From Butyrivibrio sp. (GTDB taxonomy: Bacteria; Bacillota; Clostridia; Lachnospirales; Lachnospiraceae), in NCBI GenBank assembly GCA_023664865.1, contig JAMPEU010000002.1:62001-126000 (forward strand): a stretch of 64,000 nucleotides of DNA. Direction: 5' to 3'. Below the pieces are notes generated by a model. That model was given only the letters and a program-made list of their open reading frames with translations, searched no databases and was not told where the DNA came from. The translations under genes were made by a program, and so were the position numbers. Each line of letters starts with the position of its first letter. Within the stretch, counting starts at the first letter, position 1. Positions 19,099 to 62,444 of the stretch are shown here, in pieces.

Positions 19099-19232
19099 TT
19101 GCTTAACCCCTACCTTTCATTATCAACTATCATCTATCTGCTGATTAAATCTATCCCCATTTAAAGCCATATTACTTATCAAATAATAACATATCGTCTT
19201 TGTAATGCGCAACTAATTACTTTAATCCTGCA

Positions 19233-19415
19233 GCAGCCCAGCCCACAGGAGGCAGGAACACATATATTTCCCCTTGCGGTACGTTCTCACTCCGTGAAAA
19301 ACGCAGCGGTACTAAGTTCAAAAGCTAAAAAACAGCTTTTTCACTAAGGACCGGCGTTTTTCAAGGACCGCAATGGGGAAATATATGTGTTCCTGCCTCC
19401 TGTGGGCTGGGCTGC
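19233..19415 (-). repeat. Long palindromic element, copy 1
   Basis: This 183-bp element has perfectly complementary 41-bp ends (19233-19273 and 19375-19415). Its interior core also appears in the elements at 61247 and 62310; here the core is on the minus strand (for example CTTAGTACCGCTGCG and CACGGAGTGAGA). The outer arms are unlike those of the other copies. It starts 3 bases after the deacetylase stop codon, in the sense orientation of that gene. There is no T-tract for a standard terminator and no coding sequence. The remaining roughly 130 bases up to the GH28 start look like an ordinary AT-rich leader. Confidence 0.85.
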
Positions 19416-19418
19416 TTC

Positions 19419-20204
19419 CTAGTCGAATATAATCTCATCCACAGTTACAAATTCATACCCTTCCTGCAAGAGTCTGTCAACCGCCTGCAAAGCGGCAGTA
19501 ACTGAAGTGTCATAGTAATCGTGCATCAGTATGATATCGTTTTCTTCAGCTTTAGTTACTATTTTATTTACTACGCTTGCCGCATTGTTACTGCACCAGT
19601 CCAACGGATCTATTGTCCAAAGCACGGGAATCATGTTAAGCTCCTCTTCAAATTTTTTATCCCATGTGCCATATGGCGGACGGACATATATGACTTCCTC
19701 GCCCGTTATCTCCTCTATCACTTCGCTTGTCTGCACCAGTTCCGCCTTAAATTTATCCCTGTTGTTTTTCGTCAGTTGGATATGGCTGTAGGTATGGTTT
19801 CCAATTAGGTGTCCCTCATCGTACATACGCTTAATTATATCAGGGTGAAGTTCGGCGTGTTCGCCTGTTACAAAAAATGTTGCATGGACGCCGCGTTCCT
19901 TAAGCCCATCCAAAAGCTGCTCCGTATAATGCGGGTGCGGGCCATCGTCAAAGGTAAGTGCGATTTTTTGTAGTTCTTTATCATTACCATTCTGCTCGGT
20001 TACTACTTTTTCCACTAAAATATAGTCTGCGGTTATAATGCTCCGTGAAGTTACAGTTTGCGACGTTTCCTGCGACATCTGTATTCCAGACGATTGACTT
20101 CCTGATTGCTTTCTTTCAAGCGGCTTTCCTTCCGACAAAAACAAAAGCAGGCTCACAATCATTATCATTAAAACAAAGAAAATACATTTCTTCCGACTGC
20201 TCAT
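19419..20204 (-). CDS. Polysaccharide deacetylase (CE4/NodB domain), membrane-anchored
   Basis: This 261-residue protein has an N-terminal signal-anchor helix (residues 8-24), a short linker and a NodB domain. The five CE4 motifs are present: TFDDGPH at 84-90 (catalytic Asp and metal Asp), HTYSH at 137-141 (metal ligands), RPPYG at 175-179, DPLDW, and ILMHD. It probably N-deacetylates peptidoglycan or another cell-surface GlcNAc polymer outside the membrane. The start has AAGGAG upstream. It appears monocistronic: a GH13 gene ends 73 bases upstream and a long palindrome follows the stop codon directly. Confidence 0.92.
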   Translation of the reverse strand: MSSRKKCIFFVLMIMIVSLLLFLSEGKPLERKQSGSQSSGIQMSQETSQTVTSRSIITADYILVEKVVTEQNGNDKELQKIALTFDDGPHPHYTEQLLDGLKERGVHATFFVTGEHAELHPDIIKRMYDEGHLIGNHTYSHIQLTKNNRDKFKAELVQTSEVIEEITGEEVIYVRPPYGTWDKKFEEELNMIPVLWTIDPLDWCSNNAASVVNKIVTKAEENDIILMHDYYDTSVTAALQAVDRLLQEGYEFVTVDEIIFD

Positions 20205-61246: not shown

Positions 61247-61404
61247 GTGGCATGAACTCATATGCTTCTTTTTGAGGTCCTTGGAAAACGCAGACCACTA
61301 AAAGTGGTCTTGTACTTTAGCGAGGTATTTTCGAGCTTAGTACCGCTGCGATTTTCCACGGAACGAGAGTGTACCTCAAGTAGAAGCATATGGGTTCATG
61401 CCAC
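61247..61404 (+). repeat. Long palindromic element, copy 2
   Basis: This 158-bp element has 32-bp ends (61247-61278 and 61373-61404) complementary with three mismatches. The core contains CCTTGGAAAACGC, AGCGAGGTATTTTCGAGCTT and TAGTACCGCTGCG, identical or nearly so to copy 3. An extra GACCACTAAAAGTGGTC hairpin is inserted in the left half of the core. It lies between two divergent genes rather than after a stop codon. Confidence 0.85.
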
Positions 61405-61432
61405 AGCCAGTCGTATACATCAAAAAATAATA

Positions 61433-61461
61433 TTGACCTGCATTTGCCTAAATGATACTAT
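61433..61461 (+). promoter_or_regulatory. Promoter of the SCP2-like/DUF3842 genes
   Basis: TTGACC (61433-61438), a 17-base spacer and TACTAT (61456-61461) lie 70 bases before the SCP2-like start and just outside palindrome copy 2. Confidence 0.6.
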
Positions 61462-61531
61462 AAATATATATAAAGCGCAAGTTAAGAAACTTCGCTTTTT
61501 CGTAAAATACTTGCAAAACGGAGGGATAAAA

Positions 61532-61870
61532 ATGACATACGAAGAATTATTTTCAAGCATAAAATCCGAGTTCATGAGCGCAGACGTAAGCGGCGTAAAT
61601 GAACATCTGGCGTATCAGTTCAATATTACCGGCGAAGCGGAAGGTATTTTTTATGCCGAAGTAAAAGACGGCAAGTTGTATGTAGAGCCGTATGAATATT
61701 ATGACAGAGACGCCATTTTTACATGCAAAGCGGAAACCCTGTTAAAAATTGCGTCAGGCAAGCTTGATCCCATTATGGCTGTTACCATGCAGAAGCTTAA
61801 AGTCGAAGGAAATATTGATAAGGCTTTAAAATTAAAAGGGCTCATCGAAAGCAAAAAGAAGAAAAAATAG
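61532..61870 (+). CDS. Small SCP2-like (sterol-carrier-type lipid-binding) protein
   Basis: This 112-residue protein matches the SCP2 fold in pattern: a helix, then strands FNITGEAEGIFYAEVKDGKL and YVEPYEYYDRDAIFTCKAE, then the LLKIASGKLDPIMAVTMQKL-type segment ending in VEGNIDKALKLKGLI and a Lys tail. Bacterial stand-alone SCP2 proteins bind hydrophobic ligands; the role here is unknown. ATG 61532 has GGAGGG upstream. The longer upstream frame runs through the palindrome and is rejected. It is 18 bases from the DUF3842 gene, so the two form an operon. Confidence 0.82.
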   Translation: MTYEELFSSIKSEFMSADVSGVNEHLAYQFNITGEAEGIFYAEVKDGKLYVEPYEYYDRDAIFTCKAETLLKIASGKLDPIMAVTMQKLKVEGNIDKALKLKGLIESKKKKK

Positions 61871-61888: not shown

Positions 61889-62308
61889 ATGAATATATTA
61901 GTAATCGACGCACAGGGCGGCGGAGCAGGAAAACAGCTTGTGACCGCTATAAAACAGAATATACCGGACGCCGTCATTACCGCTGTCGGCACCAACAGCA
62001 CTGCTGCTTCCGTTATGCTTAAAGCCGGGGCAGACCATGCCGCGACAGGCGAAAACGCCGTAATAGTCGGCTGCCGCAACACCGACATCATTGTCGGTCC
62101 GATAGGGATAGTCATTGCCGATTCCATGTTTGGCGAAGTTACTCCCAAAATGGCAGCGGCGGTTGCACAGAGCAGTGCAGCGCGGGTGCTTATCCCCTTT
62201 AACCATTGTGACAATATCATCGTGGGAGTTGCCGATTTTTCAATGGGGAAGCTCGTGCAGTACGCCGTCGATAAAATTAAGGAGATTGTTACCGTTCACA
62301 ACTTATAA
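61889..62308 (+). CDS. DUF3842-family protein
   Basis: This 139-residue protein starts MNILVIDAQGGGAGKQLV and contains VGTNSTAASVMLKAGADHAATGE-like and VGPIGIVIADSMFGE segments. These are diagnostic of DUF3842, a conserved small Clostridia family of unknown function. The GGG-rich first loop resembles a nucleotide-binding Rossmann start. It follows the SCP2-like gene in an operon. Its stop codon is 1 base from palindromic element copy 3. Confidence 0.85.
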   Translation: MNILVIDAQGGGAGKQLVTAIKQNIPDAVITAVGTNSTAASVMLKAGADHAATGENAVIVGCRNTDIIVGPIGIVIADSMFGEVTPKMAAAVAQSSAARVLIPFNHCDNIIVGVADFSMGKLVQYAVDKIKEIVTVHNL

Positions 62309-62309
62309 G

Positions 62310-62444
62310 GGCATGAACTCATATGTTTCCATGAGCAGTCCTTGGAAAACGCCGGTACTTAGCGAGGTATTTTCGAGCTTAGTACCGCTGCGATTTTCCA
62401 CGGAGCGAGAGCGTGCTGCTCATGGAAACATATGAGTTCATGCC
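62310..62444 (+). repeat. Long palindromic element, copy 3
   Basis: This 135-bp element has perfect 29-bp inverted ends (62310-62338 and 62416-62444). The conserved core has a hairpin GGTACTTAGC / GCTTAGTACC around GAGGTATTTTC, flanked by GGAAAACGC and GCGATTTTCC. It begins 1 base after the DUF3842 stop in the sense direction. It is the most regular of the three copies and can be used as the reference. Confidence 0.88.

What the first reader, a model, noticed from the sequence alone, without database searches (positions are those of the whole stretch)
19233..19415. Family of long palindromic elements with a conserved core and copy-specific, self-complementary arms (copy 1)
Three elements (19233-19415, 61247-61404, 62310-62444) share a core with CCTTGGAAAACGC at one side, CTTAGTACCGCTGCG in the middle and CACGGAG-GAGA at the other. 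The outer arms, 29-41 bp, are different in copy 1 from copies 2 and 3, yet each copy pairs with itself perfectly or nearly so. Different sequences kept complementary means the fold is under selection or is created by the mechanism of spread. Copy 1 has perfect 41-bp arms and begins 3 bases after a stop codon. There is no transposase and no T-tract, so neither a simple insertion sequence nor a simple terminator explains it.
Basis: partly seen in the sequence, partly recalled or inferred. Interest (0 to 1): 0.78.

Follow-up and report, generated by a model that had tools for sequence, protein, structure and literature searches.

The report
Palindromic mobile repeats with structured core
The three hairpins belong to a large, apparently undescribed family of short mobile palindromes with one conserved folded core, found in many members of one gut-bacterial family, whose arms change from copy to copy but stay complementary to each other.

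Summary
The core motif has 175 hits in this genome (reversed-pattern control 5). The family is in 33 of 36 same-genus relatives and 110 of 298 sampled genera of its family; all eight hits in a class-wide sample of 341 genomes are in that family. Rfam has no match. The core, usually 75-95 nt, shows strong covariation and a GNRA-capped side hairpin. In this genus elements end in 14-bp terminal inverted repeats with 8-bp target duplications (many decayed), and some sites are empty in a sibling species: MITE-like transposition. Tandem copies mostly sit just after stop codons (42 of 72 within 20 bp). Arms diverge between copies yet mostly match within a copy. G.U does not significantly exceed A.C in the inner 20-30 bp, though it does further out, so RNA pairing explains at best part of it. 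At 20 orthologous sites both arms often change together (47 double changes, about 8 expected), 8 switched apical hairpin type, and 2 have the core inverted in place. Best explanation: a MITE-like element reworked as a DNA hairpin (template switching, conversion between copies). Transposase and core function are unknown. New variant of a known kind.

The parts
19232..19416 (-). Copy 1, whole palindrome (long apical hairpin type, core inside)
19281..19366 (-). Copy 1 conserved core (CCTTG ... GNRA hairpin), long apical hairpin
19375..19416 (-). Copy 1, 5' arm (42 bp, perfect complement of 19232-19273)
19232..19273 (-). Copy 1, 3' arm
19419..20204 (-). Polysaccharide deacetylase gene (PF01522) whose stop codon abuts copy 1
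61247..61404 (+). Copy 2, whole palindrome, with an extra side hairpin (AGACCACTAAAAGTGGTCT) in the core; lies between divergent genes
61279..61372 (+). Copy 2 conserved core
62310..62444 (+). Copy 3, whole palindrome (short apical hairpin type)
62340..62414 (+). Copy 3 conserved core
62310..62338 (+). Copy 3, 5' arm (29 bp perfect)
62416..62444 (+). Copy 3, 3' arm
61889..62308 (+). DUF3842 gene (PF12953) whose stop codon abuts copy 3

Best explanation
The elements are short non-autonomous (MITE-like) mobile palindromes built around a conserved, folded core. Shown for this genus: they carry 14-bp terminal inverted repeats and 8-bp target duplications, some sites are empty in a sibling species, and most tandem copies sit just behind stop codons. 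Shown by comparing two sibling species: at the same sites both arms often differ together, apical hairpins are of different types, the core can be inverted, and the centre can be missing with arm remnants left. Inferred: these changes come from the palindrome folding into a DNA hairpin during replication or repair, with template switching between the arms and gene conversion between the many copies. This keeps each copy's arms matched while letting arm sequence drift between copies. Inferred: a transposase acting in trans (not identified) moves them, and the core is kept by selection, either for its own spread or for a role in the transcript.
For: Copy number: 97+78 core hits against 2+3 reversed-pattern controls; 150 covariance-model hits, all 150 places that were scored. 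Distribution: 33 of 36 same-genus genomes; 111 of 299 family genomes, 110 of 298 genera at E 0.01. Ends: class A 21+26 hits against 0+1 control, class B 43+46 against 6+5. TSD: mean 8-mer match 4.4 (class A with core, 17 rows) and 4.0 (class B with core, 12 rows) against a shuffled mean of 2.6, highest of 200 shuffles 3.1, over 37 rows that include G020 copies and one element (L064) twice; 8/8 in L024 and L118. Core-less elements share these ends and duplications (L164, L177, L165). Empty sites, e.g. L034/L157 and L007/L156. Arms: within-copy identity 0.93 against 0.79 between copies (106 copies). Orthologues, 20 sites occupied in both species: 47 double arm changes, 41 of them complementary before and after, and 45 single changes in 600 positions, about 8 doubles expected if independent; 2 in-place core inversions; 8 apical hairpin switches; at 14 of 20 sites some other copy is closer than the orthologue. 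Transcribed-strand G.U:A.C in the inner 30 bp is 50:49 in G000, 12:20 in G020 and 16:14 in distinct copies from other genomes. Core covariation: 23 of 26 pairs change on both sides; score 0.541 against 0.174 shuffled and at most 0.114 slid.
Against: No transposase with these ends was found: IS66 (PF03050) has 0 matches in this genome, and the IS66 elements of relatives for which I found ends have other ends. Duplications are often poor: 6 of 17 class A and 4 of 12 class B rows with core match at 3 or fewer of 8 bases, and L034, a site empty in G020, has only 5 of 8. TSDs were not shown in other genera. G.U does exceed A.C on the transcribed strand when arms are followed to 60 bp: 153:104 in G000 (permutation p 0.003), 37:29 in G020, 41:28 elsewhere; the inner 20 bp in G000 give 43:30 (p 0.08). 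The left arm of the nearest other copy is on average as close as the copy's own partner arm (0.952, 0.931 and 0.912 in the three sets), so matched arms partly reflect shared descent. 'Another copy closer than the orthologue' can also come from transposition after speciation. Conversion by another copy and arm-to-arm templating were not separated.
Confidence: 0.53

Rival explanations
1. Selection on the mRNA: the hairpin protects or regulates the 3' end of the upstream gene's transcript, and compensatory mutations keep the arms paired.
For: 63 of 72 tandem copies lie closer to a stop than to a start; median 16.5 bp to the stop. Transcribed-strand G.U exceeds A.C over arms followed to 60 bp: 153:104 (permutation p 0.003) in G000, 37:29 in G020, 41:28 in distinct copies elsewhere. 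E. coli REPs near stops are reported to affect translation (passages of PMC12306157).
Against: No significant excess in the inner 20 bp (43:30, 9:9, 8:10) or inner 30 bp (50:49, 12:20, 16:14). The stop-proximity bias also fits selection against insertions in promoters. In-place core inversions and apical switches are not expected from point compensation.
Confidence: 0.19
2. The core is a functional RNA (protein-binding RNA or ribozyme) with a three-way junction, and the arms are only its carrier.
For: 23 of 26 core pairs change on both sides. GNRA loop in 44 of 44 rows not chosen by pattern. Unpaired positions near-invariant in those 44 rows. Leaving out one pair, G.U exceeds A.C on the core strand 51:18.
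Against: Core orientation relative to the neighbouring genes is not fixed (29 same-same, 43 opposite-opposite) and flips in place. With the left-out pair 31-60 (C.A in 37 of 81, a wobble on the other strand) the totals are 51:55, and 21 of the 51 G.U sit at one pair. No expression data.
Confidence: 0.17
3. The core inserts into the centre of pre-existing palindromes or terminators, which is why arms differ by site.
For: In G168 the cores are nearly identical while outer arms differ by site.
Against: At the viewed empty sites L034, L007, L105 minus and L108 minus the sibling species has no palindrome. By eye, arms of different copies in one genome are still alignable. No T-tract.
Confidence: 0.06
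4. REP/REPIN-like repeats moved by a Y1 (RAYT) transposase.
For: High copy number, extragenic, palindromic, close to stop codons. One copy-rich genome, G022, has 16 Y1 matches.
Against: Of the five genomes with at least 54 element hits, four (G000, G016, G020, G026) have 0 Y1_Tnp matches. The GTAG/CGTC-like letters are one side of a covarying pair, not a fixed tag. 8-bp TSDs are present.
Confidence: 0.04

Closest known systems
Bacterial MITEs (ERIC, NEMIS/Correia, RUP, Bcr1)
   Same: Short, no coding capacity, terminal inverted repeats, direct repeats at the target, foldable transcripts, next to genes (passages of PMC3733652 and PMC10969869).
   Different: One core shared by over 100 genera; arms differ by copy yet mostly match within a copy; core inverted or of another type at orthologous sites. 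From recall, ERIC arms are conserved between copies.
REP / REPIN repeats
   Same: High copy, extragenic, palindromic, near stop codons.
   Different: No fixed GTAG/CGTC tag; no Y1 transposase in four of five copy-rich genomes; copies here run about 135-190 bp against 20-40 bp for REPs (PMC3733652 abstract in the listing).
Template-switch maintained hairpins (Monttinen and Loytynoja 2022, PMC8794818; abstract and start of introduction seen)
   Same: Proposed mechanism that makes both sides of a stem change together.
   Different: Described for RNA genes; here in a dispersed mobile family, with core inversion.
IS66-type ends
   Same: 8-bp target duplication and GTAA-like start, seen here for IS66 elements of relatives.
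   Different: TIR sequence differs (mostly GTAAGCG or GTAAACG against GTTACTATTCACAG / GTAACAGTTCAGCC); no IS66 gene found in this genome.

Membership tests
MITE | terminal inverted repeats | tested here: met
   14-bp class A and class B ends in this genus
MITE | target-site duplication | tested here: met
   8 bp in this genus; mean match above all 200 shuffles, though 10 of 29 rows with core match at 3 or fewer bases; not shown in other genera
MITE | short and without transposase | tested here: met
   copies about 135-190 bp; no mobile-element domain in the six flanking proteins scanned
MITE | autonomous partner with the same ends | tested here: inconclusive
   IS66 not found in own genome; IS66 elements of relatives with recognisable ends have other ends; other transposase families not searched except Y1
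REP/REPIN | GTAG or CGTC tag | tested here: not met
   the position covaries, T-A 43 / C-G 37 of 81 rows
REP/REPIN | RAYT (Y1) transposase in genome | tested here: not met
   0 in G000, G016, G020, G026; 16 in G022
Rho-independent terminator | U-tract after the hairpin | tested here: not met
   6 of 72, control windows 2 of 72, background 5%
Known Rfam family | score over gathering threshold | tested here: not met
   0 in window; best weak hit MIR837 29.7 bits against a cut-off of 117; 0 at E 0.1 in five loci of other genera
Structured RNA | covariation supporting the fold | tested here: met
   the alignment was fitted to the model
Structured RNA | transcribed and functional as RNA | not testable with these tools
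   no expression data

The most novel reading that the evidence does not exclude
The core is a module independent of any one transposon. It rides in palindromes with different ends across a bacterial family, and every cycle passes through a hairpin that copies one arm from the other and can flip the core, a chromosomal analogue of flip-flop hairpin replication. The arms are thus a by-product of how the element is copied, not of selection on arm sequence.
Probability: 0.2. Interest if true: 0.85.

Novelty: new variant of a known kind. Interest (0 to 1): 0.64.

Why it matters
With 175 core hits in one genome and hits in over a third of the sampled genera of its family, this is a major repeat class of these bacteria that Rfam and my literature searches do not name. 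It offers a natural, high-copy system in which to watch palindromes evolve: concerted arm change, core flipping and cassette exchange are visible between two sibling genomes. It also warns that base-pair covariation, usually read as proof of a functional RNA, may be produced at the DNA level.

Tried and rejected
IS66 as the mobiliser: 0 in own genome. 26 of 60 same-genus genomes have it, but the elements with recognisable ends and duplications have GTAAGCG-type or similar ends, and the relatives of the L190 transposase fragment found family-wide showed no class A or B end, except one class A-like match in L293 that was not followed. One end-like match (L190, GTTACTTTTCACGGGGTGGGG, resembling the outer end of core element L208) was not confirmed.

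Outer helix ends taken from a whole-segment RNA fold ran into chance pairs and were dropped for an anchored arm alignment, which placed 106 of 115 G000 copies; the other 9 were left out.

G.U against A.C relative to the core strand was replaced by the test relative to the neighbouring gene. The 52 'other genera' rows held 3 copies twice and 6 from the same genus; one search repeats the tests on 43 distinct copies, of which one (L204, G083) is still from the same genus.

One search printed index 4 (L098 minus / L416) as 'inverted'; it is a site without the core next to another copy, and I dropped it, leaving 20 pairs. Its alignment was not viewed.

Literature: searches listed nothing describing this element (listings only). 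Passages were read; abstract and start of introduction. Only open-licence papers are held.

Viral contigs (exact pattern), plasmids and phages (copy 3 as query): no match.

Full report
WHAT IS THERE. The three elements are real. Copy 1 (19232-19416, minus strand) has perfect 42-bp arms, copy 3 (62310-62444) perfect 29-bp arms, and copy 2 (61247-61404) near-perfect arms plus an extra side hairpin in the core. Copy 1 starts 2 bases after the stop codon of a polysaccharide deacetylase gene and copy 3 starts 1 base after that of a DUF3842 gene; copy 2 lies between divergent DUF2339 and SCP2 genes. By eye, the arms of copy 1 are a diverged form of those of copies 2 and 3.

HOW MANY. In the genome (a draft of 180 contigs, 96.6% complete, 5.1% contamination) the core motif has 97 forward and 78 reverse hits at up to 2 mismatches, against 2 and 3 for the reversed pattern. 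A covariance model from 38 copies matched at all 150 of the 150 places that were scored, out of 1377 candidates, with E 4e-10 or better. It hits 33 of 36 same-genus relatives and 0 of 24 genomes from other families of the order (E 0.001), 111 of 299 genomes of the family, 110 of 298 genera (E 0.01), and 8 of 341 genomes in a class-wide sample, all eight in this family (E 0.001). These searches used strict filters, so the counts are lower bounds. Many of the 80 listed titles are Lachnospiraceae or its genera (Robinsoniella, Butyrivibrio, Pseudobutyrivibrio, Eisenbergiella, Blautia); others read Eubacteriaceae, Muribaculaceae, Selenomonadaceae, Mogibacterium or an unplaced name, which I did not check. 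That the family is Lachnospiraceae is inferred from these titles. The sibling genome G020 has three contigs of the same lengths as JAMPHY010000002, 3 and 4.

THE CORE. It is 75-94 nt in the orthologues compared; a few copies are longer, with inserted hairpins. Aligned over 81 rows (44 found by the model, 37 from loci found by the pattern), 23 of 26 core pairs change on both sides in some sequence; 420 cells do so against 111 in shuffles and 45-58 when partners are slid. The alignment was fitted to the model, which favours its structure. The side hairpin next to the arm junction is a GNRA tetraloop in 44 of 44 rows not chosen by pattern, with a covarying stem, and positions 58, 61, 65, 79, 82 and 85 are invariant in those rows. 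Over all pairs G.U and A.C are about equal (51:55). 37 of the A.C cells sit at one pair (C.A) that would be a wobble on the opposite strand; without that pair the count is 51:18, of which 21 G.U sit at another single pair. The strand that matters is therefore not settled. Rfam has no match.

HOW IT MOVES. In this genus the elements end in GTTACTATTCACAG (class A) or GTAACAGTTCAGCC (class B). In 37 rows with both ends recognisable (G020 copies included, L064 counted twice), flanking 8-mers match above every shuffle on average, with 8/8 in L024 and L118 (core present) and in L164 and L165 (core absent). But 10 of the 29 rows with core match at 3 or fewer of 8 bases. Core-less elements of about 185 bp and one of 69 bp share these ends, so the ends belong to a transposon system that moves several passengers. 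Of 30 sites with syntenic flanks in the fetched G020 stretches, 20 are occupied in both species and 10 have no core in G020. Among those viewed, L034, L007, L108 minus and L105 minus lack the whole element, while L137, L124, L053 and L131 keep remnants. L013 lies in a larger gap, and L098 minus was not viewed. L034 itself shows no clean duplication (5 of 8). No transposase with these ends was found.

WHERE IT SITS. Of 104 copies with callable neighbours, 4 overlap another reading frame; of the 100 others, 29 are same-same, 43 opposite-opposite, 15 convergent and 13 divergent. Of the 72 in tandem gene pairs, 63 are closer to the stop than to the start and 42 lie within 20 bp of the stop; 6 have a T5 run after the palindrome, against 2 of 72 control windows and a background of 5%. 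Genes were called by a simple longest-frame rule.

WHY THE ARMS MATCH. Mean within-copy arm identity is 0.93 against 0.79 between copies in G000 (106 copies), 0.94 against 0.81 in G020 (31) and 0.91 against 0.71 in 43 distinct copies from other genomes. Against a simple reading, the nearest other copy's left arm averages 0.952, 0.931 and 0.912, and a copy's own partner arm is closer than that in only 35 of 106, 15 of 31 and 23 of 43. If RNA pairing kept the match, G.U should exceed A.C on the transcribed strand. In the inner 20 bp the counts are 43:30, 9:9 and 8:10; in the inner 30 bp 50:49, 12:20 and 16:14; to 60 bp 153:104, 37:29 and 41:28; over whole arms 161:106, 37:31 and 49:47 (G000, G020 and other genomes). 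Only the G000 counts at 60 bp and beyond are significant (permutation p 0.003); the counts were not given a permutation test. Comparing 20 orthologous pairs over 600 inner-arm positions, both arms changed at 47 (41 complementary before and after) and one arm at 45; about 8 doubles are expected if arms changed independently. At 8 of 20 sites the apical hairpin differs between long and short types, and 2 of 20 differ by an extra side hairpin (L023 viewed, L170 judged by length). 2 of 20 have the core inverted while the outer flanks stay collinear (L113/L138, L136/L147). At 14 of 20 sites some other copy is closer to the element than its orthologue is; later transposition can also cause this.

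READING. The simplest account is a MITE-like palindrome that is worked on as a DNA hairpin: template switching between arms, conversion between copies, and occasional inversion or loss of the centre. RNA selection on the arms may add to it. That template switching can keep stems paired is published for RNA genes (abstract and start of introduction of PMC8794818). What the core does, and what moves the element, are open.

Noticed in passing
L164:12609-12793, L177:1186-1371, L106:1395-1580, L176:1097-1282: A second repeat of about 185 bp without the core (GTAACAGTTCAGCCATGCAGAAATG...) sharing the class B ends; 8-bp duplications of 8/8, 7/8 and 6/8 in the first three.
   Followed up: partly
L165:14253-14321: A 69-bp minimal palindrome with class A ends and a perfect 8-bp duplication; looks like a core-deleted derivative.
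   Followed up: partly
L103:17637-17830: Another core-less element with class A ends (7/8 duplication) holding a GGAGCGAGAAAGC-like stretch.
   Followed up: no
L004:1700-1900, L023:1700-1900: A copy type with quite different outer arms (TTGTACAATATATACAAAACA...) around a similar core hairpin, next to a normal copy; the L004 one is absent in G020.
   Followed up: partly
L190:2380-2440: End-like sequence GTTACTTTTCACGGGGTGGGG beside IS66 gene pieces in G022, resembling the outer end of core element L208.
   Followed up: partly
L242-L244: In genome G350 left arms are 62, 88 and 113 nt long; by eye those of the three copies are alignable but diverged, each self-complementary.
   Followed up: partly
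window 61262-61870: An open frame of 202 aa starts inside copy 2 and runs in frame into the SCP2 gene (its likely own start is 61532), so an element can in principle add an N-terminal extension.
   Followed up: no
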